Shown here: positions 6,449 to 20,780 of the stretch, piece by piece
How positions within the stretch are numbered: position 1 is the first letter of the stretch
Layout: the number at the start of each line of letters is the position of its first letter
Assembly: GCA_005116965.1 (NCBI GenBank)
Contig: SWDG01000022.1
Coordinates: forward strand, 60,789-95,402
DNA length: 34,614 bases
Origin: Nitrospira sp.
GTDB taxonomy: Bacteria > Nitrospirota > Nitrospiria > Nitrospirales > Nitrospiraceae
Direction of reading: 5' to 3'
Program-made: the position numbers and the translations under genes
Notes under the pieces: generated by a model
What the model saw: only the letters and a program-made list of their open reading frames with translations
Told to the model about the DNA's origin: nothing
The model's database searches: none

Positions 6449-7798
6449 TCAGTTCCGTGTCAGCCAACCGTTGAGTTCTTCCAGATCCGTCCGGGTGAGG
6501 GTCCCGCCCCAGACACGTAAAGCCACCATGGATCGGATATAGTCGTAGCGAGCCCTGGCATGGGCAAACCGGGATTTGAGGAGATTCTTTTTCGCTTCCA
6601 GCAGCGCCACGATCGTTGACGCGCCCAACTCATAGCCCCGTTGCTGGCCATCCCGGGCTTTGACGCGGGCCTCCACCTCGCGCGCCGTCGAGGCAATGCG
6701 TGAGTATCCCGTTTTGGCATTCAGATACGCCGTCCGCGTCTCCCGTTCGATCTCACGTTGCTTTTCCATACGCTTGTACTTCACCATTTCAAAGCGGGCG
6801 AGGGCTTCGCGTTCTCCGGCTTTCATGCTGCCACCAGAAAATAAGGGCACCGTGAGCTGCAGTCCCAAAGTCCCGACCGTGTAGGGGTCCAGCTGCCGGT
6901 TATCGAACCCGCCATTCTTGGCATAAATGCCGGCCATCTGCAGGGACAACTGGGGGAGATGATTGGCCCACTGACTGGCAATGGCTTTGGCGGACGCGTC
7001 CATCGCGTGGTGCAACGCGCGGATCGCCGGATGACGCGTGACCGCGTCGGCCACCCACTGGTCGGACTGTCCAGGCACCGGTGGCAACTCCTCTTTTGTG
7101 AGTCGAGCTAGATCGGTCACCGGCGTTCCAACTACCTCCCGTACCTTTTCCAAGGCGATCGCCTTCGCATTGTGGATTTCAAGTTCGCGCGTTTTGAGCG
7201 TCTGGTAGTAAGCCTCCACCTCGTAGAGATCGGTGACTTTCGCCATGGCGCGCTCGTACAGACGGCGGATCCGCTGCATCTCCCCGTCGGTCACGTCCAA
7301 CTCGCTTTGCACATAGCTCGCTTCATCATGGGCCAGCAGGAACTCCAAGTAGCGATCGACTAAGTCGGTGGCGAGCCCCATGCGGGCATTTTCCAAGTCC
7401 TGCTCCGCTTGCTTCACGGTCAACCCGGCTCCCTCATAGGCACGATAGGAGGCCAGGTCGAACAGCGCTTGCCGCGCCTGCACCACACCGCGCAATCCCT
7501 GATATTGCGCGGTGAAATCCGTGGTCTGTCCAGTAGATTGGTTCTGGCCTTCCTGGGTTAATTCGTTCCACGTGATGTTGCCGGTGGCCGATACTTGGGG
7601 CAAAAGTTTGCTGCGTGCCTGATCCTGCTGGGCTTCTACCTGCACGACAGAATACTGTCGGCCCATCACGACTGGATTGGTGGCCAGGGCCACATCGTAG
7701 AGCTGCAGCAACGTGGCCGGTGGCCCATCGGCCGCCTCGGCCGTCGGGCTGAGAAGCATTAGTGTCAACACGAGAAGGACGAGATTTCCCATTGTCAT
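6449..7798 (-). CDS. TolC-family outer membrane efflux protein of a type I secretion system
   Basis: A 449-residue outer-membrane channel subunit. The signal peptide (NLVLLVLTLMLLSPTAEAADG) leads into the usual duplicated OEP architecture: long helices rich in Gln/Ala/Glu and strand signatures such as LFSGGSMKAGEREALARFEMVKYKR. The C-terminal half has the canonical RTAYLNAKTGYSRI and LLEAKKNLLKSRFAHARARYDYI blocks. Two ATGs are possible (7798 and 7792); GGAG sits 3 or 9 bases upstream respectively, so 7792 is equally likely. It is the last gene of the RTX export locus, 69 bases after the fusion-protein gene. Confidence 0.92.
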   Translation of the reverse strand: MTMGNLVLLVLTLMLLSPTAEAADGPPATLLQLYDVALATNPVVMGRQYSVVQVEAQQDQARSKLLPQVSATGNITWNELTQEGQNQSTGQTTDFTAQYQGLRGVVQARQALFDLASYRAYEGAGLTVKQAEQDLENARMGLATDLVDRYLEFLLAHDEASYVQSELDVTDGEMQRIRRLYERAMAKVTDLYEVEAYYQTLKTRELEIHNAKAIALEKVREVVGTPVTDLARLTKEELPPVPGQSDQWVADAVTRHPAIRALHHAMDASAKAIASQWANHLPQLSLQMAGIYAKNGGFDNRQLDPYTVGTLGLQLTVPLFSGGSMKAGEREALARFEMVKYKRMEKQREIERETRTAYLNAKTGYSRIASTAREVEARVKARDGQQRGYELGASTIVALLEAKKNLLKSRFAHARARYDYIRSMVALRVWGGTLTRTDLEELNGWLTRN

Positions 7799-7867
7799 CG
7801 ACTCCGCTCTGTGCGTGGTTGTCAGGACACCTGTCTAGATTGGAAGGAGATCGGGTCGTCTCTCCGC

Positions 7868-8554
7868 TCAATCCTCGAGAAAGGCGCGTGTGAAGGTGTC
7901 GGTCAGGGGCTTCATCAAATACTGCACCAGGGTTCGTGCCCCGGTCTTGATGAGCACCTCCGCGGGCATTCCCGGCACCAGTTCAAGGTTGGCATCTCTC
8001 AAGGCCTGAAGGCCACTGGGAGAGACCTCAACTCGGGCCAGATAGTAGGCGGTCTCGCCGCTGGTGCTTTCTTTGGTGTCCCGCACAATTCGATCCGCTG
8101 AGAGACTGATCAGTGTTCCGTCGATGGTGGGCACATCGCGGGTCTTGAACGCGCTGAACCGCACCTCCGCGATCTGTCCCACCGTGACCCGATCAATGTC
8201 GATGGGTGCGACTTGGGCTTCGATGATGAGCTTCTGATGTTGCGGGACGATGTCGAGTAGCCGGCCACCCGGGGGGAGCACGGCGCCGATCGTATGCACG
8301 GCCAACCCCAGCACCATCCCTGAGACAGGGGCCTTGATGACGGAGCGGTTGACCAGACTTTCCAGCGACTGCACTTTCTCGCGCAGTTGGAACAATTCGG
8401 CCTGGACGTCACTCAACTCTTTGGCGACTTCCCGTTGCAGGTCTTTGTGCAGCTGCAAAATCTTGAGTTCGATCTCTCCAATTTGCAACTCGCTCGCCGC
8501 CATATCGGACAGCAGTTGCCCGCGTTGGCCTTGGGGCACCGGTCGACTACACAT
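7868..8554 (-). CDS. HlyD/PrtE-type membrane fusion protein, lacking the N-terminal half
   Basis: This is the periplasmic adaptor of a type I secretion system. It aligns with the C-terminal half of the PrtE/AprE class: the second coiled-coil arm (IGEIELKILQLHKDLQREVA), the lipoyl half RSVIKAPVSGMVLGLAVHTIG, a beta-barrel block (PIDIDRVTVGQIAEVRFSAF) and the end VPGMPAEVLIKTGART...MKPLTD. Family members are usually about 430 residues; this one has 228 and lacks the transmembrane anchor, the first lipoyl half and the first coiled-coil arm. The ATG at 8554 has an excellent AAAGGAG seven bases upstream, six bases after the exporter stop; a GTG at 8560 is too close to it. The short protein therefore seems to be the translated form. 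An in-frame internal deletion after the start codon would explain it. Function is doubtful unless another adaptor complements it. Confidence 0.85.
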   Translation of the reverse strand: MCSRPVPQGQRGQLLSDMAASELQIGEIELKILQLHKDLQREVAKELSDVQAELFQLREKVQSLESLVNRSVIKAPVSGMVLGLAVHTIGAVLPPGGRLLDIVPQHQKLIIEAQVAPIDIDRVTVGQIAEVRFSAFKTRDVPTIDGTLISLSADRIVRDTKESTSGETAYYLARVEVSPSGLQALRDANLELVPGMPAEVLIKTGARTLVQYLMKPLTDTFTRAFLED

Positions 8555-8566
8555 GGGCACACTCCT

Positions 8567-10360
8567 TTACGATGTTTGTTCCGGAACGACCGGCAGGACA
8601 TGCTCCAAGCGTGTGCCAGTCGCCGGCCTTGGTGGAGACACCGCGGGCGGCGGTTGGGCCATGGCCGCCAGGACCTCTTCACGCGATCCATACCGGGCCA
8701 GTTTTCCCTGTACGATCAGTGCGATCTTCTGCACCGCCTGGAGCACATTTGTGCGATGCGTGACCACCACTACGGTACAGCCGTCCCGTTGTAAGTGTCG
8801 TAACGTGGTCATGAGGGCAGCTTCCCCGGCCATGTCGAGGTTTGCATTGGGTTCATCGAGGACCACCACGCGTGGCCGTCCGTAGATCGCCCGGGCAATC
8901 CCGAGGCGTTGCTGTTGCCCGGCTGAGAGGGCGACGCCGCGACCAATCAATGGGGTGTCGTAGGCCTGCGGCAAGGTCAAAATCATCTCATGGATCCCCG
9001 CCCATCGGGCCGCTTCGACTACACGGTCCGCCTCAATCGAGCCGAATCGCGCGATGTTCTCCGCAACGGTGCCGTCGAGCAATTCCACATCTTGCGGGAG
9101 GTAGCCCACGTATTGACCAAGCTGGGTCCGATCCCAGTTGTGGAGGTCTGCGCCATCAAGGCAGACCCGTCCGCGCGCTGGAAGGTACAGGCCGAGGATC
9201 GCCCGTGCCAAGGTGGATTTGCCGGCTGCACTGGGTCCGATGAGCGCCACCGTCGTCCCAGGCTCGATCATGAGGGTCACCCCGTTCAGAATGGGCTCGT
9301 TCCGACCCGGCACCGCGATCACGAGGTCCTCCAGTGTGACCTGCCCCCGTAATGGCGGTAACGACATGTGGGCGGCGCGTTCGGGGATGGTTCGGAGCAG
9401 CGTATCCAGCCGCCCATAGGACTCGCGCGCCCCGAGAAACCCGCGCCAGCCTGCAATCATTTGGTCGAGCGGCGCGAGCGCTCGCCCCAACAGAATGGAC
9501 CCGGAGATGACCAGCCCGGGAGAGATCGCCTTTTGGATGGCCAGATAGGCCCCCAGCCCCAACACGAGCGATTGAATCGTCAGCCGGTAGGTCCGAGCCA
9601 GGGCGTTGATCAAGCCGGCCTTGGTGCTGGCTCGACTTTGCAGTGTGAGCACCTGCATCTGTCGCGCGGACCAGCGTGCTCGTAAGCGGGGCAGCATCCC
9701 CATGGCCTCCACCACTTCGGCATTGCGTATATTGCGTTGGACGAACTGGGTGGCCTCGATTGATTCGCGGTTCGCCTCCGCCAGATCAGTGCGGGTCGCC
9801 AGCTCATTCCACCATGCGAGCGCCGCCAACAGAAGCATGGACAGGACCGCCACAATCCCGAAGTAGAGATGAAACAGGAACATGAGTCCGACATAAATCG
9901 GGATCCAAGGCGCATCGAAAAAGGCCAGCAATCCCGGGCCGGTCAAGAATTGCCGGATCTGCAACAGATCGGTCAGGGGGTGGGCTGTGGCGATCGTTCC
10001 GCCGCTAGTGAGGGATTGGGTAAAGATGGCGTCAAAGACCCGTTCCCCGAGGTGCTCATCGAGGCGGGCACTCGTCGCGACCATGATCCGTGACCGGATC
10101 CATTCGAGTCCGCCGAGCACCAGGAAGAGAAAGACGGTAATAGCCGTGAGCATCAGCAGCGTCGACTCACTGCCGCTCATTAGCACCCGGTCATATACGG
10201 CGAGCATGTAGATCGCCGGCACGAGCATCAGCAGGTTCACGAACAGGCTAAAAAATGCGGTGGTCAGGAAGGACCGACGACAGGCTGCTAAGGCCTGTTG
10301 CAGATCGGACGACTCACTCGTCAGAGGTGTCATTGGGGTGGAGAGATTTGGTTTCATCAT
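8567..10360 (-). CDS. Type I secretion ABC exporter (PrtD class)
   Basis: An inner-membrane ABC exporter of about 597 residues with fused membrane and ATPase domains, energising export of RTX proteins. The membrane domain has hydrophobic spans from SFLTTAFFSLFVNLLMLVPA onward, with the PrtD-type DRVLMSGSESTLLML block. The ATPase has Walker A GPSAAGKST (about residue 375), signature LSAGQQQRLGIARA (about 478), Walker B VVVLDEPNANLD (about 508) and the H-loop VVVTHRT. The frame is open to 10489, but a promoter lies at 10461-10489. The start is therefore taken at the ATG pair 10360/10357, which lacks a clear Shine-Dalgarno. The C-terminal tail is proline-rich. It is directly upstream of the fusion-protein gene. 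Confidence 0.93.
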   Translation of the reverse strand: MMKPNLSTPMTPLTSESSDLQQALAACRRSFLTTAFFSLFVNLLMLVPAIYMLAVYDRVLMSGSESTLLMLTAITVFLFLVLGGLEWIRSRIMVATSARLDEHLGERVFDAIFTQSLTSGGTIATAHPLTDLLQIRQFLTGPGLLAFFDAPWIPIYVGLMFLFHLYFGIVAVLSMLLLAALAWWNELATRTDLAEANRESIEATQFVQRNIRNAEVVEAMGMLPRLRARWSARQMQVLTLQSRASTKAGLINALARTYRLTIQSLVLGLGAYLAIQKAISPGLVISGSILLGRALAPLDQMIAGWRGFLGARESYGRLDTLLRTIPERAAHMSLPPLRGQVTLEDLVIAVPGRNEPILNGVTLMIEPGTTVALIGPSAAGKSTLARAILGLYLPARGRVCLDGADLHNWDRTQLGQYVGYLPQDVELLDGTVAENIARFGSIEADRVVEAARWAGIHEMILTLPQAYDTPLIGRGVALSAGQQQRLGIARAIYGRPRVVVLDEPNANLDMAGEAALMTTLRHLQRDGCTVVVVTHRTNVLQAVQKIALIVQGKLARYGSREEVLAAMAQPPPAVSPPRPATGTRLEHVLPVVPEQTS

Positions 10361-10460
10361 GGTTATCGTAAGTTCATGGAGCCATGGTGGAGCAGCAAAG
10401 GCCTCTTGCGTGTGATTAGCTGTATGACTCCGTAGTGATAACGTCCAAAATTTGGCTACG

Positions 10461-10489
10461 TATGTAGCGCATCGTAGCGAAGCTTTCAA
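10461..10489 (-). promoter_or_regulatory. Putative promoter of the exporter genes
   Basis: On the minus strand TTGAAA (10484-10489), a 17-base spacer and TACATA (10461-10466). A small palindrome, GCTAC-GTAT-GTAGC (10455-10468), overlaps the -10. It lies between the RTX hairpin and the exporter start, so exporter genes could be expressed independently of the substrate gene. Confidence 0.4.
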
Positions 10490-10598
10490 GCCATTTAGCT
10501 AGGCTCTTTGACCTCGACTCTGGTCGTTTCGGCTCATATACATAAGTCCTATTCCCAATGGAATGGTAGTGGGCTCCCTTATCCCACTCTCACTCGAT

Positions 10599-10628
10599 GC
10601 GAGGCGCCCCTGAACAGGGGCGCCTCGC
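10599..10628 (-). terminator. Strong 13-bp hairpin after the RTX gene
   Basis: A perfect inverted repeat, GCGAGGCGCCCCT / AGGGGCGCCTCGC (10599-10611 and 10616-10628) with a GAAC loop, begins 15 bases past the RTX stop. No T tract follows on either strand, so it may act as a partial terminator or 3' stabiliser rather than a full intrinsic terminator. Confidence 0.65.
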
Positions 10629-10643
10629 GTGACGTCACGAGTC

Positions 10644-11609
10644 TTACAGGATAATGTCGGTGACGTGTACCGCCGGAGCCCCGGTTAGCTGAATCTGGAA
10701 CTCCGCCGCTGCATCGTTATCAATATTGCCGTTCAGGACCCCGCCGGAGTACCAGACGTGTCCCGCCGTATGAGGCCCCCCAAAGATAAAGTCCTGGTTG
10801 CCGGATTTTGTGACATTGGCATCGATCCCCTTCAGATCGATTTTGTCGCCGATCCCAGACCCATTACCCTTGAAATCGGTGATGACATCCCGCCCTGCAC
10901 CAGCTGGGCTGTCGCTGACCGACTTGTACACGAACTTATCGTGCCCCGTCCCCCCAGTGAGCGTGTCCTTGCCGCCGCCACCGATGAGCGTGTCATTGCC
11001 AGCCAGGCCCTTGAGTACGTTGTTCCCGCTGTTGCCGGTGATAACATTGTGATTCCCATTGCCCGTGCCATTGATGTGTGCAGAGCCGGTGAGGGTGAGG
11101 TTCTCGATCCCCTTGTCCATATGGCTCAGGACATAGCTCACGGATGACTTCACCAGATCTACCCCGCCTAGGGCATCGTTATATTGTTCTGCTGCCTTAT
11201 CATCCTTGTGGTTCACAATGTAGATATCGTTTCCGTCGCCGGCGTCCATGGTGTCAGCTCCGCCCTTCCCATCCAGCGTGTTCTTGCCGCTGTTACCTTC
11301 GATGAAATTCTTATTATCATTGCCGGTGCCATTGATATTCCCAAAATCGGTCAGGTGGAGGTCCTCAATCCCGAAACCAAGTTTATGGGACGCGGATGCG
11401 TACACGACGTCATGACCGCCCAACGTATCGTTATAGAACTCCGATGTCGTATCGCCCACGTTGTCGACATAGTAGATGTCACTGCCGTCGCCGCCGTGCA
11501 TCACGTCGGCCCCGGTCAGACCATCAAGAGTGTCATCATCTGATGTGCCGAAAAGGGCGGGGAAAATAACTCCATTATCATCAAAAATGGTACCAGTAAT
11601 GTTTGCCAT
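10644..11609 (-). CDS. RTX (hemolysin-type calcium-binding repeat) protein, type I secretion substrate
   Basis: A 321-residue extracellular protein. It consists almost wholly of RTX nonapeptide repeats (GGDGSD, GGADTMDAGDGND, GLAGNDTLIGGGGKDTLTGG) alternating with beta segments. Two modules of about 85 residues are visible: each runs from a calcium repeat through YxVDxxxD and a (Y)ND(T/A)LGG element to an HINGTGN or NINGTGN element. There is no protease HExxH, lipase or other catalytic domain. The C-terminus is TDIIL: an acidic residue followed by hydrophobic residues, as in the PrtA-class uncleaved secretion signal. GGAGG lies two bases before ATG 11612 and five before ATG 11609, so 11609 is preferred. 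It is first in the secretion locus and is presumably its cargo. Confidence 0.92.
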   Translation of the reverse strand: MANITGTIFDDNGVIFPALFGTSDDDTLDGLTGADVMHGGDGSDIYYVDNVGDTTSEFYNDTLGGHDVVYASASHKLGFGIEDLHLTDFGNINGTGNDNKNFIEGNSGKNTLDGKGGADTMDAGDGNDIYIVNHKDDKAAEQYNDALGGVDLVKSSVSYVLSHMDKGIENLTLTGSAHINGTGNGNHNVITGNSGNNVLKGLAGNDTLIGGGGKDTLTGGTGHDKFVYKSVSDSPAGAGRDVITDFKGNGSGIGDKIDLKGIDANVTKSGNQDFIFGGPHTAGHVWYSGGVLNGNIDNDAAAEFQIQLTGAPAVHVTDIIL

Positions 11610-12112
11610 CATAACCTCCTATATTGGTGCGTTCTCCCAACCGGATCATCCGGCCAGGGTTGTCGAGGGGGAACGGCTCCCGAAAGTGCATCATCCACCC
11701 TCATGAATTTGAACCGGTTCACGATTTACTCCTGCTCTCACTGCGCACCTCGGCTTTCTCCCTCCTTTCCTTCTTTCCATGCCGCTGTGGTCACGATGTT
11801 ACGTCCAACGCCGATGCCTGCCCCCGCTCGGATCACCGAGCCAGTGTTCGACACCACTCGCGGCTGCGTTCATCTGGAAGCGCTCACCCGAGCGACCATT
11901 TGAAATAATGAGGCTGCCTCACCATTGTGGGTCGCCATGCGTTCAGTGGTGGCAAGCGACTGATGCCTGGCTAAAGCAAACGCGATGCCAGCCTGAGACC
12001 AGCACACAGACAAGCTCGCTCGATGTTCCAATCGTACGTATTATCAACAGCATCTGAACTGCCTATCGAGTTATACGTAGCTTCCTACTCATGCTGCGTA
12101 CCGAGGGGGTGG

Positions 12113-13328: not shown

Positions 13329-14468
13329 TTAGGTCGACCGCATTTCCCACTGATTGCCCATCACGCCGAGCCGGTTGCGGTTCCGGCTCGGGTCGTCATG
13401 TGGAATCCCATCGATACTCATGCGGATGTCGGCATTGACGTGTCCCACGAGATAGTAACTGTGTTCCACGAGACCCTTGACGAGAGGGGTGCAGTCGACC
13501 TGGTGTACCTTATTATGCACGTGAGCTGGTCGCGCCGGGCCGTTTGACCCCAGTCGATCCGGATTGCCTTTTGTGAAATCAGAAATGACGAGGGCGGCAT
13601 CGCCGCGATTGTGGTAGACGCTAACGCTTCTGGCCAATTCGTGTACCCTGGCCAGCGGTTCCCCCTGTTCCAGTGCAGTATCGTCCACGTCGGGTGAACA
13701 GAGAAAGATGTGTTCGAAGATGCGGGGTAGCGCATTGCCAGGGGTGAAGGCATCGCACCGTTCGAGAGCGTTCTGTAAGAGGTAGTTGCCCATCGAGTGA
13801 CAGAGGAGATGGAGATCTTGTTTGCAGAGCGCTTCTTCTGCTCGGCGCAGGCTGGCGAGAAAGTCCCGTACCTTTAGAATGCCGCGGCCGATAGCGTTGC
13901 CGGACCCGGCCGCCTCTGACCGATCCGATTTGTAGGAGACGAAGGGGAGTGCCATTCCGTCGGAGGGCCAGGTGAAGAGTACGACCTGCACCTGCTGTTC
14001 CGGGTCTCTCTCCGGACTGGCATTCAACATGGTCTGCAGCGATAGAGCCGTCCCGACGGCGTCGGTCCAGGAGACGTTGTAGCCATGGATAAACAGCAGC
14101 ACATCCGAATGCTGGCGCATGATCGTTTGCAGATCTGAGAACGCTGCCTGCGAGCCCAGCTTGATGTTCTCTTGTTGGTCTTCGGCGACCGACCGGTTGA
14201 TCTTTTCCCGATAGGCCAGGATGTCGGCGGACTCGGCGCATTTGGCCAGGTACTTGATGAGCCCCTCGCCGTCGCCCTGTCCCATGCTGCCACAGTCCTT
14301 CTGGAGAAATTTGGCCATCTTGGATTCATCAACCTTGACGAGGACTCGGCCGAAACGAAGATTCTCGACGCCGTCGTCGCTGAATTTCTTGCCGTACCCA
14401 TCCGGGTGCCAGCGATCGTCGCCTAGGTGATTGCGGTTGGTCGCGTAGAAGAGTCGTAAGTCAGTCAT
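13329..14468 (-). CDS. DUF900 alpha/beta hydrolase
   Basis: A 379-residue predicted serine hydrolase. Visible features are a strand/oxyanion block VLLFIHGYNVSW, FTWPSDG, and the nucleophile elbow LLCHSMGNYLL (Ser within HSMGN). A block IFLCSPDVDD carries a candidate acid residue. A histidine-rich end (LVEHSYYLVGHVNADI) holds likely catalytic His. This pattern, especially HGYN, TWPS and HSMGN, marks the DUF900 family. No signal peptide is present, so it is probably cytoplasmic. The start at 14468 is set by GGAG eight bases upstream; the longer frame to 14489 lacks a site. Substrate unknown. Confidence 0.85.
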   Translation of the reverse strand: MTDLRLFYATNRNHLGDDRWHPDGYGKKFSDDGVENLRFGRVLVKVDESKMAKFLQKDCGSMGQGDGEGLIKYLAKCAESADILAYREKINRSVAEDQQENIKLGSQAAFSDLQTIMRQHSDVLLFIHGYNVSWTDAVGTALSLQTMLNASPERDPEQQVQVVLFTWPSDGMALPFVSYKSDRSEAAGSGNAIGRGILKVRDFLASLRRAEEALCKQDLHLLCHSMGNYLLQNALERCDAFTPGNALPRIFEHIFLCSPDVDDTALEQGEPLARVHELARSVSVYHNRGDAALVISDFTKGNPDRLGSNGPARPAHVHNKVHQVDCTPLVKGLVEHSYYLVGHVNADIRMSIDGIPHDDPSRNRNRLGVMGNQWEMRST

Positions 14469-14577
14469 GATCAGAGCTCCTTCTGTCACGAACGTGAGGT
14501 ACTGTGGCGGTGTCGGGCAGTGACTGCGTAGATGTGCTTATCGGCTTCGATGGGGAAAGTCAAGGCTGAGTAGCCGA

Positions 14578-15534
14578 TCAATAGGTGAGTGAGCGTTCAG
14601 GAGGACTCCCGTGTAGCTCCGTCAGAAGAAACCGCCGAACCCGTGCGCGCGCGTCTCGGGAGGGCTGCCCAGTCTCGTCCTCCCATTTCCAGGAACCAAT
14701 CAAGGTGCTGTGGGCGTTGGTCGGTTTTCCATCATGCTGGTATTCGTCAGCTGGGATTTCGCCGCTGAGAAACCGTTCGCCAAACTCTTTGCGTAGCGTG
14801 TGTTGTTTCGCGGGATCTGACATGCAGTCTGTTTCAAATCTCAGTCCATAAATCTTCGCAGTACTGCCACGTGCGCCCTGAAGGTCGTCAACTGAGAGAC
14901 CGAGTGATTGTTTGTCCACATCAGTGGACCACCAAAAGGACAGAGGCAACGCCGGTTGGGCGACCACCGCAGCACCAACGTGCGGATTGTCCAGCAGTGC
15001 CACAGGGAGGGGGCCGGTCATGCAGTTCCCGATCACGCCAAGTCGCTGCTCATGGTGGCGCCCTCCAATCTTTTGCACCACACCACGTAGCCAGTCAACG
15101 ATGGGCGTGCTTCCATGAGAGGGAATGCCCCACTCGCCGCCGGGAAAGAAATCAATCACACCGCGAAACCAATAGGCCCATAATCCAGAGGCCGGGGAGA
15201 GTGTTCCTTTCTCACCGAACAACAGGGGCACATAGACAGTGAAGTCTTTCGAGAGTTCTTCCGCATAAGCGAGTGTCCCTGGCGTCAGCCCTGTTAGCTC
15301 GTGGAGCAGGAGCAGAGGCGGTTTAGAAGTGCTGTCATTGAGACAGAACACCGAATGCGTTATTCCAGCATGTGTGATGGGAGTCTCGAAGCATTCGGTC
15401 CAATTCAGTGTAGGAGTGCCTTCTTCTTTCGTATGTGGCGCGCATGTTCCCAACTGCGCGGCTCCACAACCAGCCTGTAAGAGGAGCAAGGCTGTTGCAA
15501 TTGCGCGAAAGAGAGAACGGCGAGGTGTTTTCAT
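14578..15534 (-). CDS. Dienelactone hydrolase-like lipoprotein
   Basis: A 318-residue predicted lipoprotein with an alpha/beta hydrolase fold. The N-terminus MKTPRRSLFRAIATALLLLQ leads to lipobox AGC, which places the start at ATG 15534 rather than the longer frame to 15576. The hydrolase core has LLLLHELTGL, VYVPLLFGE and a cysteine nucleophile elbow GVIGNCMTG, matching the GxCxxG of dienelactone hydrolases. The likely acid lies near RFETDCMSD and the histidine is in NAHSTLIG. It would act in the periplasm on lactones or esters. It is 109 bases upstream of the DUF900 gene on the same strand, so the two hydrolases may be co-expressed. Confidence 0.83.
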   Translation of the reverse strand: MKTPRRSLFRAIATALLLLQAGCGAAQLGTCAPHTKEEGTPTLNWTECFETPITHAGITHSVFCLNDSTSKPPLLLLHELTGLTPGTLAYAEELSKDFTVYVPLLFGEKGTLSPASGLWAYWFRGVIDFFPGGEWGIPSHGSTPIVDWLRGVVQKIGGRHHEQRLGVIGNCMTGPLPVALLDNPHVGAAVVAQPALPLSFWWSTDVDKQSLGLSVDDLQGARGSTAKIYGLRFETDCMSDPAKQHTLRKEFGERFLSGEIPADEYQHDGKPTNAHSTLIGSWKWEDETGQPSRDARARVRRFLLTELHGSPPERSLTY

Positions 15535-15771
15535 AGCTGTTGTACACCACCAGGGATTACTATGTGTGTGGTCCAAGTCGCAGGTGACCCTGCCGAAGCT
15601 TGCCAGCCTTGACGGGCCAAGACAAGCCCGATGTTAGTGAGGCGCATGCAACAGGAGAGACGCGATGGCTCTCCTAACTGCCAAGCAGGACGCACGTCAG
15701 TGGTACAGTGGCTTAATCAGAACCGTGATGTCATCAGCAGCAGCGAGGGCTGCTCGCCAACGCACTGACAC

Positions 15772-17037
15772 CTACTGAATCGAGCGGAGCACTTCACGCG
15801 TAGTAGGTGTATGTAGTTTGCTCAGTGCATGAGCCTCGATCTGCCGAACCCGTTCCCGGCTTGAATCTAACTGTTCGCCAACCTCGACCAAGGTCATCAT
15901 TTTGTCGTACCCGAGGCCGAAGCGCATGCGAATCACGGCGTTTTCTCTTGGGCTGAGCGGGCTCAGGAGGCGTTCGAGTTCCTTTTCTCGGTCGAGCTGA
16001 TGGATGGAGCTGTCCGGCGGGGCTGTCTGATGATCGGGGAGAAGGTCGCCTAAGACGGTCTGACCCTCACCGACCGGTGTCTCCAGTCCGAGTGGTTTTT
16101 GAATGGCGGCTAACGTGGTGCGCACTCGTTCTGGACGGAGTCCAAGGGTTCGAGCGATGTCCTCTATCCGAGGCGCTTCTCCGAGTTGCAGCTCCAATCG
16201 TCGCGTGGCCCGGGCGATGCGACTGGCGGCCTCGCATTGGTGAACGGGCACACGGATTACACGGGATTGCTCGGCGAGCGCCCGCGTGATGCCTTGACGG
16301 ATCCACCAGGTCGCGTAGGTGCTGAACTTGAATCCCTTGCGGTATTGAAAGCGTTCCGCCGCCTTCATCAAGCCAATATTTCCTTCCTGAACCAGATCGA
16401 GCAGCGTGAGGCCGTGTGTGATGTACCGTTTTGCGACATCGACTACCAGGCGCAAGTTGCGCCGGACGAGCTCCTCTTTCGCGTCTTCCAGCTGTTGGCC
16501 TGCCGTTCGTATCTCCGTCAGCATCGTGAGGAGTTGCTGACGGACCTGCGGTTCCATGAGGCTGCCCTCTTCGGTTGATCCAGCCCACGCACTGAGAAGT
16601 GTGTCGGCTCGATCCAGGGCAATGGCAGAGAGACCGCTCAGACGCCGGATGGCACTGAGCTCTTGAATCGTCTCTTTACGGGAGGTTGGGGAGACAGCGT
16701 GAGCCAGTATGGCCGTGGCGTTCTTCAGGGACATCCTGATGCGGCGGGTTCCTTCGTCGATTCGCTTGGCAAGGTGGAGTTCCTCCTTCTTGGTCAATAG
16801 GGCTGTACCACGGAAGGAACGGAAATAGAGAGATTCGAGTAGAAAGGGATTCTGTCGGCTTCCACCCTCTGTGTCAGGCCAGACGGTTGGGTCAGAGTCT
16901 CCGTCGGGCTCTTGGTCGCATGCGATCTGGTTGATGAGTGCTCCGGAAGTGGCCTCGTCTTGATCGGTAACCTCCAGCTCAATTTTGTCCTCGAAATGAA
17001 TACTTTCAGAGATCCCTCTTAATTCATCATCCCTCAT
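15772..17037 (-). CDS. RNA polymerase sigma-70 family factor (group 2, RpoD/RpoS-like)
   Basis: A 421-residue sigma factor. After an acidic non-conserved N-terminus come region 1.2 (NPFLLESLYFRSFRGTALLT, LAKRIDEGTRRIR), a poorly conserved spacer of about 80 residues, and region 2 with NLRLVVDVAKRYITHGLTLL, DLVQEGNIGLMKAAERF and the -10 contact block FKFSTYATWWIRQGITRAL. Region 3 starts at VIRVPVH and region 4 ends with the helix-turn-helix TLVEVGEQLDSSRERVRQIE. The N-terminus is shorter than in primary RpoD, and the RpoD 1.1 domain is missing, so this is probably a stress or stationary-phase type sigma. The start at 17037 is set by AGGGAG seven bases upstream; the longer frame to 17088 has no good site. 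Confidence 0.93.
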   Translation of the reverse strand: MRDDELRGISESIHFEDKIELEVTDQDEATSGALINQIACDQEPDGDSDPTVWPDTEGGSRQNPFLLESLYFRSFRGTALLTKKEELHLAKRIDEGTRRIRMSLKNATAILAHAVSPTSRKETIQELSAIRRLSGLSAIALDRADTLLSAWAGSTEEGSLMEPQVRQQLLTMLTEIRTAGQQLEDAKEELVRRNLRLVVDVAKRYITHGLTLLDLVQEGNIGLMKAAERFQYRKGFKFSTYATWWIRQGITRALAEQSRVIRVPVHQCEAASRIARATRRLELQLGEAPRIEDIARTLGLRPERVRTTLAAIQKPLGLETPVGEGQTVLGDLLPDHQTAPPDSSIHQLDREKELERLLSPLSPRENAVIRMRFGLGYDKMMTLVEVGEQLDSSRERVRQIEAHALSKLHTPTTREVLRSIQ

Positions 17038-17120
17038 CGCTAATCTCCCTTCAGCCATCAGACCTAAAGCCAAGGTCCTAAGGCTCACCTACATAGTAGT
17101 GGTGGGTAAAGGCTGATTAA

Positions 17121-17200: not shown

Positions 17201-18880
17201 TTAACATTGGTTATGTTGTTGTCCAACAGACGATGCTTCCCGACACGTGTCGTTGCTGCGATCTGAGGTAATACATCCCAGCAGTATTGGATGATCCCAG
17301 TTGAAGACATCATAGCCGAAATTTGAGTCTTGATGGCAGACCTCGTCGAGGTCCGTGAGGCCAGGGAAGTAGATATACAGTGGGGCACCATGCTCGTGGT
17401 CCTTTTGTAAGCCATTCCTTAGCCGACACACATCTTCCATTCGTCCACTTCGATCAGCCGAATGGTCAGATACGATGATATCTGGAAGTTTCCGTTGAAT
17501 AAGTGCATAGGCGCCAAGATTTTCGGATTGCCCGCCATCCGACAATCGAATATTTACATAATCACTAGCTGAATTCCCTGCGCGTCCATGGAAGAAATAC
17601 AGTGGAAATGGGAGGAGCCTATGGAATACAGCTTCCGACCAATGAATATGAGGATTTGGAATACTTCTTCCCCAATCTAAGGTGAAAAACTTTAGAAGTG
17701 GGTTGTAGAAAGGGGGGGCAACCTTTTGCTGTGAATCCAGAAAAGCTGCTGATGAGGTCACTGCCTTCCAGGGGAGAAGATTGCCTAGTGTCTTTGAGGA
17801 GTATCGAAATAGTCCAGAGCCAGATCCGTACGGAGAAAACTCAAAGCTTGTCAGTTGAAATGGTTTCTGGCCCGGGTTAAATCCTGCAGAGATGACGTCC
17901 CTATTCTCGCCAGCCGTGGTATTGATAATCCACAATGGAATCATGCCGTTCTCGTAGTGTTCCTTTAGCAGGTCAAAGGTCAGCTGAGTTCTTGTCCAGT
18001 CCTCATTGCCCTCCGGGCGAGTTTGTTCAGAGCAGGTGGTCTGCGTGCAGTTTGCCGGTGTGGCTCCAAAGGTTCTGACGATCCCATTTTCGTATTTCCA
18101 GCGGGACAGAGAGAGAGGGATTTCCCAGTCAAACATGGTGTTGAGAAGGATATTAAGTGGTAGTGACCCAACTGTTAATGCCGTAAGAAGCCCAAAGTCA
18201 CTCCAGTTGCGTCCTTGGTCTCTGGTTGTTTCTTCGTATCGAAAAGAATCAATTAAAGGTAAGTTTAAGACGAAAATATCTTGATAACCGCGAAGGTGAT
18301 TCTGATATCGGACTTGGTCGAGTTCAAAGCCTGTTTTCTTATCAGGGTTCTTTTTGTCGCGATAAAAATTGGTCAATGTTGTTTGAGGGCAGTTTCCGGA
18401 GGAGCGATTCTCAGATGAAGGTTTGTTCTCAGGAAGTGAGTCAGGGATAAATTCTGCATTGACATACTTATAGGGAATGCAATCGGCAAAGAACTTCTCT
18501 GCAAATTCCTTGTGGTCAAACGGCCTTAAGAAGTTGCGAGGGAATTCTGCTGGGTTTAGCAGTCTGGAAAAATACCAGAGCGCAGCGTAGCCGCCCCCAG
18601 AGACCGTTGATATGGCATCCACTTGATCCATGATCTCCGCTTCCGTTAACCCTTGGAGCATGCCGATTGAGAAGTCTGCAGCCTTAGTTCCTCCGCCAGC
18701 CAATGCGAGTCCTAGGTGGGGAGCAGTTCCTTTACTGTGAGTGCGGTCTTCAATCCCTTGTTGTAAATATTCCGTTTGTGTAAGAGCGCCGGGTAGAGGC
18801 TGCGTACTACAGCCACTGACTAGAAGGCAGATGGCAATTAGGACAGGATTGGCATTCTGAAGTGTGACGAGTGGTCTCAT
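17201..18880 (-). CDS. Patatin-like phospholipase lipoprotein
   Basis: A 559-residue predicted lipoprotein acyl hydrolase. Signal NPVLIAICLLVSGC has its lipid-bearing cysteine at residue 24. The patatin fold is visible as the oxyanion loop LALAGGGTKAADFS (GGGTK at 62-66), the nucleophile block ISTVSGGGYAALWYF (Ser94) and the catalytic DGG in RLSDGGQSENLGAYAL (Asp448). The first Gly of the classic GxSxG is replaced by Thr, a variant known in SGG-type patatins. About 350 residues lie between Ser and Asp, more than in simple patatins. The start is ATG 18880 (a TTG adjoins it); no Shine-Dalgarno is seen, so coupling to the upstream frame is likely. It is last in a lipoprotein operon and would act at the envelope on lipids. 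Confidence 0.88.
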   Translation of the reverse strand: MRPLVTLQNANPVLIAICLLVSGCSTQPLPGALTQTEYLQQGIEDRTHSKGTAPHLGLALAGGGTKAADFSIGMLQGLTEAEIMDQVDAISTVSGGGYAALWYFSRLLNPAEFPRNFLRPFDHKEFAEKFFADCIPYKYVNAEFIPDSLPENKPSSENRSSGNCPQTTLTNFYRDKKNPDKKTGFELDQVRYQNHLRGYQDIFVLNLPLIDSFRYEETTRDQGRNWSDFGLLTALTVGSLPLNILLNTMFDWEIPLSLSRWKYENGIVRTFGATPANCTQTTCSEQTRPEGNEDWTRTQLTFDLLKEHYENGMIPLWIINTTAGENRDVISAGFNPGQKPFQLTSFEFSPYGSGSGLFRYSSKTLGNLLPWKAVTSSAAFLDSQQKVAPPFYNPLLKFFTLDWGRSIPNPHIHWSEAVFHRLLPFPLYFFHGRAGNSASDYVNIRLSDGGQSENLGAYALIQRKLPDIIVSDHSADRSGRMEDVCRLRNGLQKDHEHGAPLYIYFPGLTDLDEVCHQDSNFGYDVFNWDHPILLGCITSDRSNDTCREASSVGQQHNQC

Positions 18881-18910
18881 CAATAGTGCCGTTCAGTATG
18901 CTGCTGTAAT

Positions 18911-19096
18911 TCAAGTTGAGATGACATACGTGTGAAGCGTAGGTTTGTGAGAAGTCCTGTACGGGTCATATTTTGGAATAGAGGAACACTCTTGAAGTGA
19001 ATCCGTAGTGATCTCTTGTAAAGCGCGTCGTGCTCGCTCAGCCAGGTTTCCAAAGCTCTCACTCCGGTCTCCCGGTAACTGCCTTTTCATCACCAT
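18911..19096 (-). CDS. Possible small protein between two lipoprotein genes
   Basis: A 61-residue frame starting two bases after the stop of the Ig-domain lipoprotein gene and ending 30 bases before the patatin start. It is hydrophilic, with one probable helix (FGNLAERARRALQEITTDSL), and has no signal peptide. I recognise no family. A competing frame (GTG 19062 to TGA 18880) overlaps the patatin ATG as TGATG and might instead serve coupling. Which of the two is translated cannot be decided by eye. Confidence 0.35.
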   Translation of the reverse strand: MVMKRQLPGDRSESFGNLAERARRALQEITTDSLQECSSIPKYDPYRTSHKPTLHTYVIST

Positions 19097-19098
19097 AC

Positions 19099-20397
19099 CT
19101 ACTGGACATGCACCGTTGTTTCCACTGAGATTGGTGGTAATGATGAATCAGTTATCTTTACCTTATCCGTCATGTTCCCAGTGTTCCCTGCTGTGTAGAG
19201 TCCCCTTTGATCAATGGCACCGCCAGACTTGTTGTCAGAAATCGTGAATGTGAAAGGGGGCACACCACCGATAGCAGAAAATTGTAGGGTTTGTCCTTGG
19301 GCAACGCTTTGTCCTTTTGGTGTTATATCAAGTGTTGGATAGACTGTGATGGTGGCAATAGCTGCTCTTCCCGTCTTGTCAGATGCTCCGACTGAATAGG
19401 TCCCCGGTGTCTTTCCGGCCGTGTAAATGCCTGTCGAAGGGTCAATACTGCCGGCTGTGGCAGTATCATGCATGAGGGTGAATCGGACTTGGCCTTTCCC
19501 GCCGGCGACCTCGAATGTCCGTGTGCTCTCAACGGTCATTGCTACACTTTCTGGCATGATCAGAAAATCGTTTTGAGGATACAGGGCCTTATTCAACACC
19601 GAATTCACCTCCCGGCGTTTGACAAATTCGCTCGCTGCCTTGCCGGTGGCAAAGAATTGCACGTGGTTCACGCCACTTTGCTCTTTGGTACTGATTACAC
19701 TGGAGTTATCGAGTGAGGCCACAAAGGACGGAAGTGTAACTTTCCACTCTTTGGTATCAGTTGAGTCTGCTTTGTCTGAACATTCTTTTTTCAAAACTTC
19801 TTGGGCGAATATTGGCGGGAAGGCGAGCTCTTTTCGGTTATAGCCCAATTTCACTGTGCTCGGATAAGGACCGGTTGAGCCATCCCAGGCTGCCTTCAAG
19901 CCAAAAGAGGTGTCTGTTGCAAAATAAAAGTCTCGAGAGCTCTCATCTTTCTGAAAGGTAAGTGTTTGCCATGCCCATTTCCAGAACGGACGGAGGTCTG
20001 GTTCTTTTGACAAACAGAGAGTGGATGGGGCCAGGTCTTTGTGCTCATTATCTGGTCCTTCCGCAAGAATAACGGCAGCCTCTCCGCCTGCAAAGCGAGA
20101 AGTGATCGTGGGATCAAAGAATGTTCCTTCCAGTCCGAATGATGCTAGCAGCGGCAATGTATTGTGTGTCTTAGCTGCATTCTGATCAGAGTTCCTTTCG
20201 CCACGTACGTCACGAAATGTGGGAACAACGGCCAACTCCCGCCGTGCAATGGTTACTTCAGCTGTAGGCGGCTTGGAATCTATGTCCAGCCCGTAGCTGG
20301 TTTTTGTTGCAAACAACAGCCGATCGTTCGTTTCGCATCCTGGGAGAGAGATGCCAACAACGAGCAAGGCGATGCTGCAGTTCCATTTCCTATTCAT
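19099..20397 (-). CDS. Lipoprotein with duplicated N-terminal module and C-terminal Ig-like domains
   Basis: A 432-residue envelope protein. Signal IALLVVGISLPGC ends in a lipobox (Cys21). An internal duplication follows: module A (about 27-112) has LLFATKTSYGLDI ... TIARRELAVVPTF and FAGGEAAVIL. Module B (about 157-260) has FYFATDTSFGLKA ... LGYNRKELAFPPIF and FATGKAASEF. The C-terminal 160 residues hold two bacterial Ig-like repeats, marked by GSIDPSTGIYTAG and GGAIDQRGLYTAG. The ATG overlaps the stop of the upstream lipoprotein gene (ATGA at 20394-20397), so the two are co-translated. Function unknown; the architecture suggests an envelope binding or scaffold protein. Confidence 0.8.
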   Translation of the reverse strand: MNRKWNCSIALLVVGISLPGCETNDRLLFATKTSYGLDIDSKPPTAEVTIARRELAVVPTFRDVRGERNSDQNAAKTHNTLPLLASFGLEGTFFDPTITSRFAGGEAAVILAEGPDNEHKDLAPSTLCLSKEPDLRPFWKWAWQTLTFQKDESSRDFYFATDTSFGLKAAWDGSTGPYPSTVKLGYNRKELAFPPIFAQEVLKKECSDKADSTDTKEWKVTLPSFVASLDNSSVISTKEQSGVNHVQFFATGKAASEFVKRREVNSVLNKALYPQNDFLIMPESVAMTVESTRTFEVAGGKGQVRFTLMHDTATAGSIDPSTGIYTAGKTPGTYSVGASDKTGRAAIATITVYPTLDITPKGQSVAQGQTLQFSAIGGVPPFTFTISDNKSGGAIDQRGLYTAGNTGNMTDKVKITDSSLPPISVETTVHVQ

Positions 20398-20780
20398 TGT
20401 TTAGGCTCCTTCTTATCCTGTGTGCTCGTATTCGATTGAAAATATCCCAAGTCGGAGGGGTACGTTCCTATTTTGAAATAGAAATAGTCTCTACTTGGAT
20501 GGGGTTCGATGGTGACTGCGGTGTTTTCTCCAGAAATCAGAATGTGTTCTCGTCGGTCGTAGCCGGCGCTTATTCCCAAGGAACCATTGTCCATCCCAAC
20601 AGCTATTCCGGACAGGGTCATTCGTTGAACAAGCGCCTGCTTCCCATCGTTGGGAGGTATTGTCTTAACGGAAAGATGCCCGAAGCCAAAAATGTGTTCC
20701 GCCCCAGTATCACGGTCGCGGTAATAGATGGCACAACCGGACAGGAGAAACCCAAGGGTGATTAAGAGGGAAATACTCAT
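20394..20780 (-). CDS. Small lipoprotein sharing a motif with its downstream neighbour
   Basis: A 128-residue lipoprotein. MSISLLITLGFLLSGC is a clean lipoprotein signal, so ATG 20780 is preferred over the longer frame to 20831, although its Shine-Dalgarno (GGAAG) is very close. The mature part begins AIYYRDRDTGAEHIFGFGHL and contains GSLGISAGYDRREHI. This resembles the two TSxGL...YxRKEL repeats of the next protein. No known domain is recognised. It is first in the four-frame operon ending with the patatin. Confidence 0.78.
   Translation of the reverse strand: MSISLLITLGFLLSGCAIYYRDRDTGAEHIFGFGHLSVKTIPPNDGKQALVQRMTLSGIAVGMDNGSLGISAGYDRREHILISGENTAVTIEPHPSRDYFYFKIGTYPSDLGYFQSNTSTQDKKEPKQ

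What the first reader, a model, noticed from the sequence alone, without database searches (positions are those of the whole stretch)
17201..20780. Lipoprotein-lipoprotein-patatin operon with a motif shared by the two leading proteins
Three envelope proteins with lipoboxes (128, 432 and 559 residues) are packed in one operon. The first two are joined by an ATGA overlap, and the second and third are separated only by a possible small frame. Protein 1 contains GSLGISAGYDRREHI; protein 2 has two copies of a related block, TKTSYGLDI...IARREL and TDTSFGLKA...GYNRKEL, each followed by a second FAxGxAA element. A repeat shared between neighbours suggests they co-assemble or bind the same ligand, with the patatin as the enzymatic output. 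I know of no named system of this design.
Basis: partly seen in the sequence, partly recalled or inferred. Interest (0 to 1): 0.72.

Follow-up and report, generated by a model that had tools for sequence, protein, structure and literature searches.

The report
Lipoprotein cassette with exchangeable envelope lipase
Nitrospira-type bacteria carry an undescribed set of two or three small outer-membrane-type lipoproteins encoded in a row, often directly in front of an exported lipid-cutting enzyme whose type differs between species, which suggests the lipoproteins hold or control the enzyme.

Summary
The operon is real: P1 (128 aa) and P2 (432 aa) overlap by 4 nt, and a patatin follows 218 nt later; all three have lipoboxes. 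P2 carries two divergent copies of one module (hairpin with invariant T/G/R/E/P, then FATGxAA). The module is a new family with no Pfam, NCBIfam, PHROG or PDB match, found in 22 other Nitrospirota genomes and sporadically in Pseudomonadota, often as two tandem lipoproteins. A small P1-like lipoprotein sits directly upstream at 27 of 27 testable loci. P1's own motif match to the module is suggestive only.

The patatin partnership is partly supported. A patatin lies directly downstream at 8 of 23 Nitrospirota loci, from two distinct patatin types; 6 of 7 type-II patatins found are there. Two other loci have an alpha/beta hydrolase instead. But close relatives of this fused P1-P2 pair lack an adjacent patatin, as do the Pseudomonadota copies. 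The window's patatin keeps its Ser-Asp dyad but lacks about 200 C-terminal residues present in its relatives.

Best reading: a constant lipoprotein unit with an exchangeable envelope lipase, which it anchors or restrains (inferred). New variant of the known lipase-plus-lipoprotein kind; interest 0.5.

The parts
20394..20780 (-). P1, small lipoprotein (128 aa, lipobox LSGC-A), with a His..Gly element (EHIFGFGH) near the lipidated Cys and a hairpin-like motif GIAVGMDNGSLGISAGYDRREHILI
19099..20397 (-). P2, two-module lipoprotein (432 aa, lipobox LPGC-E), start codon overlaps the P1 stop (ATGA)
20053..20337 (-). module A of P2 (about residues 21-115): FATKTSYGLDI...IARRELAVVP...FAGGEAA
19567..19947 (-). 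module B of P2 (about residues 151-277): FATDTSFGLKA...LGYNRKELAFPP...FATGKAA
19102..19545 (-). C-terminal Ig-like region of P2 (Big_2-like, below Pfam's cut-off); variable between relatives
18884..19098 (-). gap between P2 and the patatin (218 nt to the ATG start); no supported gene, no terminator-like site on the coding strand
17201..18883 (-). patatin-like lipoprotein (type I; 560 aa from TTG, 559 from ATG; lipobox VSGC-S); GGGTK oxyanion loop, Ser95 in TVSGGG, Asp449 in SDGGQ; lacks about 200 C-terminal residues found in its relatives
14578..15576 (-). neighbour: dienelactone-hydrolase-like lipoprotein (332 aa); its homologue lies directly downstream of P2 in G002 and near P1-P2 in G335
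13329..14489 (-). neighbour: DUF900 alpha/beta hydrolase (386 aa), syntenic in G002

Best explanation
P1 and the module protein(s) form a constant lipoprotein unit on the outer membrane. It works as the cognate envelope partner of an exported lipase encoded just downstream. The unit is made either as P1 plus two single-module lipoproteins or, as here, as P1 plus one two-module protein. The lipase slot is exchangeable: type-I patatin, type-II patatin, or one of two alpha/beta hydrolases. Most likely the lipoproteins bind the lipase, hold it at the membrane and keep it in check, so that it cuts a chosen lipid pool (foreign or damaged lipid) without harming its maker. Shown: the gene order, the module family, the duplication, the lipoboxes, the recurrent lipase next door and the kept catalytic residues. 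Inferred: outer-membrane location, physical binding, and restraint or anchoring as the role. In the window the patatin is C-terminally shortened and may have reduced or altered activity.
For: The module family and its P1 partner are conserved: a P1-like ORF lies directly upstream at 27 of 27 loci with enough sequence, and P1-alpha is never found without P2 (7 of 7). A patatin lies directly downstream at 8 of 23 Nitrospirota loci: type I in the window and G293, type II in G006, G113, G190, G194, G291 and G338. 6 of 7 type-II patatins in 175 Nitrospiraceae genomes lie there, although the patatins of G006 and G113 share only 26% identity, so the linkage is old. Alpha/beta hydrolases of two kinds lie directly downstream in G025 and G016. 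Module-bearing Nitrospiraceae genomes have 1-8 patatin genes each, so chance adjacency is roughly 0.001 per genome. The lipases themselves carry signal peptides or lipoboxes, so all parts go to the envelope.
Against: The closest relatives with P1-alpha and fused P2 (G002, G045, G221, G335, G329, G023, G012) have no adjacent patatin. Pseudomonadota loci have no lipase nearby. Five of seven type-I patatins occur away from the modules, four of them beside unrelated lipoproteins. No direct evidence of binding or inhibition. The window's patatin is truncated.
Confidence: 0.45

Rival explanations
1. The lipoproteins are true immunity proteins of an antibacterial lipase: the lipase attacks neighbours and the lipoproteins neutralise it at home, as Tli lipoproteins do for type VI Tle lipases.
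For: The design of lipase plus lipoproteins with an exchangeable enzyme is like effector-immunity loci; Tli3 is an outer-membrane lipoprotein that inhibits the phospholipase Tle3 (PMC9860674). The modules are often duplicated in tandem.
Against: The lipases carry Sec signals or lipoboxes, unlike the cytoplasmic Tle3 of PMC9860674, and no VgrG, PAAR or Hcp gene was recognised in the loci read. Many loci have the lipoproteins but no lipase (orphan immunity is possible).
Confidence: 0.2
2. P1-P2 is an independent two-protein envelope complex. Lipase genes settle next to it in Nitrospiraceae by gene-neighbourhood drift, or because both are regulated together, without physical partnership.
For: The P1-module pair is universal while the lipase is not: absent at 7 Nitrospirota loci and in all Pseudomonadota loci. 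Fused forms in G023 and G278 are followed by an unrelated membrane/Ig-like protein.
Against: Two distinct patatin types plus two alpha/beta hydrolase types recur in the same slot, with short or overlapping gaps, far above the patatin background.
Confidence: 0.3
3. The module builds an oligomeric beta-barrel or pore in the outer membrane through which lipase products or the lipase itself pass.
For: AF2 model of a minimal module: four strands (7-19, 30-43, 67-75, 81-89) plus a helix; the top VIA-align rows include pore proteins.
Against: Model pLDDT 63.5; best Z 5.3 and Foldseek E 0.67 mean no significant fold match. Strand 2 carries an invariant R-x-E core and shows no beta-amphipathic alternation (p=0.63).
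Confidence: 0.05

Closest known systems
Tle/Tli type VI lipase effector and immunity lipoprotein pairs
   Same: A phospholipase or lipase gene beside a lipoprotein gene; Tli3 is an outer-membrane lipoprotein (PMC9860674).
   Different: Lipases here have their own Sec/lipobox signals, no T6SS parts were recognised nearby, and the lipoproteins match no known family.
Patatin-like phospholipases (PF01734), including PlpD/T5d and ExoU types
   Same: Gly-rich oxyanion loop, Ser in an SGG elbow and Asp in DGG.
   Different: Lipoprotein or signal-peptide forms with long C-terminal extensions and no POTRA/BamA part seen; the Pfam match covers only residues 59-131 of the window protein.
VolA/FadL (surface lysophospholipase lipoprotein with an OM channel; own knowledge, not read here)
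   Same: A lipoprotein lipase with an outer-membrane partner encoded next to it.
   Different: The partners here are small lipoproteins, not FadL; the enzyme family differs.

Membership tests
Patatin-like phospholipase (PF01734), window 17201-18883 | Profile match over the curated cut-off | tested here: met
   32.4 bits against 27.7, residues 59-131
Patatin-like phospholipase (PF01734), window 17201-18883 | Ser-Asp dyad and oxyanion loop | tested here: met
   GGGTK, TVSGGG (Ser95) and SDGGQSEN (Asp449); the Ser and Asp motifs are kept in all 7 type-I proteins
Patatin-like phospholipase (PF01734), window 17201-18883 | Full length like its type-I relatives (not a feature of PF01734 as such) | tested here: not met
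   About 200 C-terminal residues missing, no match to them in any frame of the window
Patatin-like phospholipase (PF01734), window 17201-18883 | Lipase/phospholipase activity | not testable with these tools
   needs enzyme assay
Type VI Tle/Tli effector-immunity pair | Effector without Sec signal, delivered by T6SS | tested here: not met
   Lipobox or signal peptide (by inspection) at the N-terminus of the patatins and of the G025 hydrolase
Type VI Tle/Tli effector-immunity pair | VgrG, PAAR, Hcp or adaptor genes in the locus | tested here: inconclusive
   none recognised among the ORFs of the loci read, but no profile scan for T6SS parts was run
Type VI Tle/Tli effector-immunity pair | Lipoprotein inhibits the lipase | not testable with these tools
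   needs co-expression or inhibition assay
Known lipoprotein families (Pfam, NCBIfam, PHROGs, PADLOC, PDB) | Profile match of P1 or module | tested here: not met
   no family over a cut-off for P1 or the modules; no PDB sequence match for the module

The most novel reading that the evidence does not exclude
A previously undescribed, modular outer-membrane lipoprotein system in which a constant lipoprotein pair or trio accepts different lipases (two patatin types and at least two alpha/beta-hydrolase types) as interchangeable enzymatic parts, each physically bound and regulated by the lipoproteins.
Probability: 0.35. Interest if true: 0.7.

Novelty: new variant of a known kind. Interest (0 to 1): 0.5.

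Why it matters
It defines an unannotated lipoprotein family with a clear signature and links it to exported lipases in Nitrospira and its relatives, whose envelope biology is little known. If the lipoproteins bind and restrain the lipase, this would be a new way for Gram-negative cells to carry a membrane-cutting enzyme safely. The tandem operon in Nitrospira defluvii (FP929003.1) offers a complete-genome version to test.

Tried and rejected
A genome-contig scan with P2 alone found nothing because its patterns were too specific; alignments A1 and A3 were too diverse for the scan. Plasmids: no module relative, only an Ig-domain match. The first AF2 model of module B was poor (pLDDT 59.4). Foldseek and VIA-align on the second model gave no significant match; pore-like rows were not taken as evidence. 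A recent internal duplication of P2 was rejected: A modules (support 84) and B modules (support 100) form separate clades across genomes, so the two copies are old. Fusion of the b and c tandem genes in that order is not supported either, because A groups with c (97). A frameshift explanation for the patatin's short C-terminus was rejected: no trace of the missing part in any frame. Defence-system membership: no PADLOC match. Literature: no paper on a Nitrospira patatin system found.

Full report
What is there. On the minus strand of the window three open frames follow each other: P1 (20394-20780, 128 aa), P2 (19099-20397, 432 aa) and a patatin-like protein (17201-18883, 560 aa from TTG or 559 from ATG). 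P1 and P2 overlap by ATGA; the patatin starts 218 nt after P2, and no terminator-like site lies on the coding strand in that gap. All three start with a signal peptide ending in a lipobox (LSGC-A, LPGC-E, VSGC-S). None has Asp at +2, which by the E. coli rule (own knowledge) points to the outer membrane. Pfam sees only a weak Ig-like match in the P2 C-terminus and a patatin match in the third protein. NCBIfam and PADLOC give nothing for the three window proteins, and PHROGs nothing for P1 and P2.

The repeat. P2 residues 21-115 and 151-277 are two copies of one module. They match each other by BLASTP at E=1e-4, and each matches the profile of single-module homologues with HHalign probability 96.7% and 98.4%. 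The module signature is F.T.T..G(L/I).....P....GY.R.E...P, a variable loop, then a hydrophobic stretch and FATGxAA. In 16 B-type and single modules T, G, R, E, P and the T, G, A, A of the last element are invariant; module A keeps most of these. In P1 the stretch GIAVGMDNGSLGISAGYDRREHILI aligns to the first half of the module in the same register in three separate P1 subgroups and beats 99-100 of 100 column shuffles, but HH probability stays at or below 5.5%. I treat the P1-P2 shared motif as suggestive, not shown.

Distribution. Profile searches found the module in 21 of 175 Nitrospiraceae genomes and, counting the same-order genome G045 and the same-phylum genome G080, in 23 Nitrospirota genomes including the window. 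It also occurs in Phenylobacterium, two other Alphaproteobacteria, a Hydrogenophilaceae and Arsukibacterium. It is rare in Pseudomonadota: one further genome in a sample of 397. In ten Nitrospirota genomes the two modules are fused in one protein, as in the window; in nine they are two lipoproteins in tandem; the other four show a single module, one of them cut by a contig end. In a tree of modules, A and B form separate clades (support 84 and 100), so the duplication is old, not local.

P1 is an invariable partner. A small ORF (116-287 aa), with a lipobox in nearly all, lies directly upstream, mostly overlapping the module gene, at 27 of 27 loci where enough sequence is present; the other two are cut by contig ends. 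The Phenylobacterium copy was found by reading the frames by eye. P1 proteins diverge strongly, but share a His-x-x-Gly-like element soon after the lipidated Cys, and profile comparison links some subgroups weakly (E about 3e-4 to 3e-3). P1 of the window's type was never found without P2 (7 of 7 genomes).

The enzyme next door. In the window a patatin follows. Its cassette relative is in G293: P1-module-module-patatin, 57% identical over 541 aa. Six genomes (G006, G113 = Nitrospira defluvii FP929003.1, G190, G194, G291, G338) have P1-module-module-patatin with a different, roughly 980-1210 aa patatin type. Among 175 Nitrospiraceae genomes seven carry that second type, and six of the seven have it in this cassette. 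The G006 and G113 patatins share only 26% identity, so the linkage has lasted. In G025 and G016 an alpha/beta hydrolase takes the same place. A homologue of the G025 enzyme lies four genes downstream of P1-P2 in G329, G002 has hydrolase genes on both sides of the pair, and G335 has a patatin about 2.5 kb downstream. Module-bearing Nitrospiraceae genomes hold 1-8 patatin genes each (G045, of another family, has none). With roughly 4,000 genes per genome (my estimate), the chance that the next gene is a patatin is about 0.001, against 8 of 23 seen, or about three independent lineages.

Limits. The other seven genomes with the window's own form (P1-alpha plus fused P2) have no adjacent patatin, and the Pseudomonadota loci show no lipase next door; in the Hydrogenophilaceae locus the contig ends soon after the module. 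Five of seven type-I patatins sit elsewhere, four of them beside unrelated lipoproteins. The window's patatin is the only patatin found in its genome. It keeps GGGTK, TVSGGG (Ser95) and SDGGQSEN (Asp449) but stops about 200 residues before its relatives, and no trace of the missing part is found in the window. The patatin partnership is therefore a recurrent, not an obligate, feature.

Structure. With 17 sequences, AlphaFold2 gives a modest model of a minimal module: four strands in two hairpins and a helix, with the first hairpin fairly confident and the rest not (mean pLDDT 63.5). No significant fold match. Pore-forming proteins appear among the top rows, but Z is at most 5.3 and strand 2 has no beta-barrel alternation, so I do not claim a pore.

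Mechanism. The best reading is a constant lipoprotein unit that anchors and restrains an exported lipase, with the lipase exchanged between lineages. Gene order, module family, lipoboxes and catalytic motifs are shown; location, binding and restraint are inferred. The main rivals are an immunity role like Tli lipoproteins (PMC9860674), weakened by the lipases' own export signals, and an independent envelope complex that merely attracts lipase genes.

Noticed in passing
window 6449-11612 (-): ABC transporter, membrane-fusion-like protein and TolC-like protein next to an RTX-type repeat protein: looks like a type I secretion locus.
   Followed up: no
window 15772-17088 (-): Sigma-70 family sigma factor (438 aa) sits between the patatin and the hydrolase genes; in G002 (L043) the hydrolase follows P2 directly without it.
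   Followed up: partly
L158, L159, L160 (G149, G258, G180): Type-I patatins lie beside unrelated lipoproteins with the motif RIEVEVYKGPLSLEPEIQLGELYGYL (about 540 aa, no Pfam match): a possible second lipoprotein-patatin cassette.
   Followed up: partly
L045 8512-9309 (+), L081 4625-5368 (-): Homologous membrane proteins with an Ig-like C-terminus lie just downstream of the fused module protein in G023 and G278, in place of a lipase.
   Followed up: partly
L126 7232-8200, L130 4979-6028: A homologous membrane-type protein (TAWIDVA.GLT..YLG.SLFVT.INEYI) flanks the P1-module genes in G329 and G295.
   Followed up: no
L002 / G002:C258:12863-13684: Similarity to window P2 continues past an in-frame TAG, so G002 seems to have lost the Ig-like C-terminus by a stop codon.
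   Followed up: no
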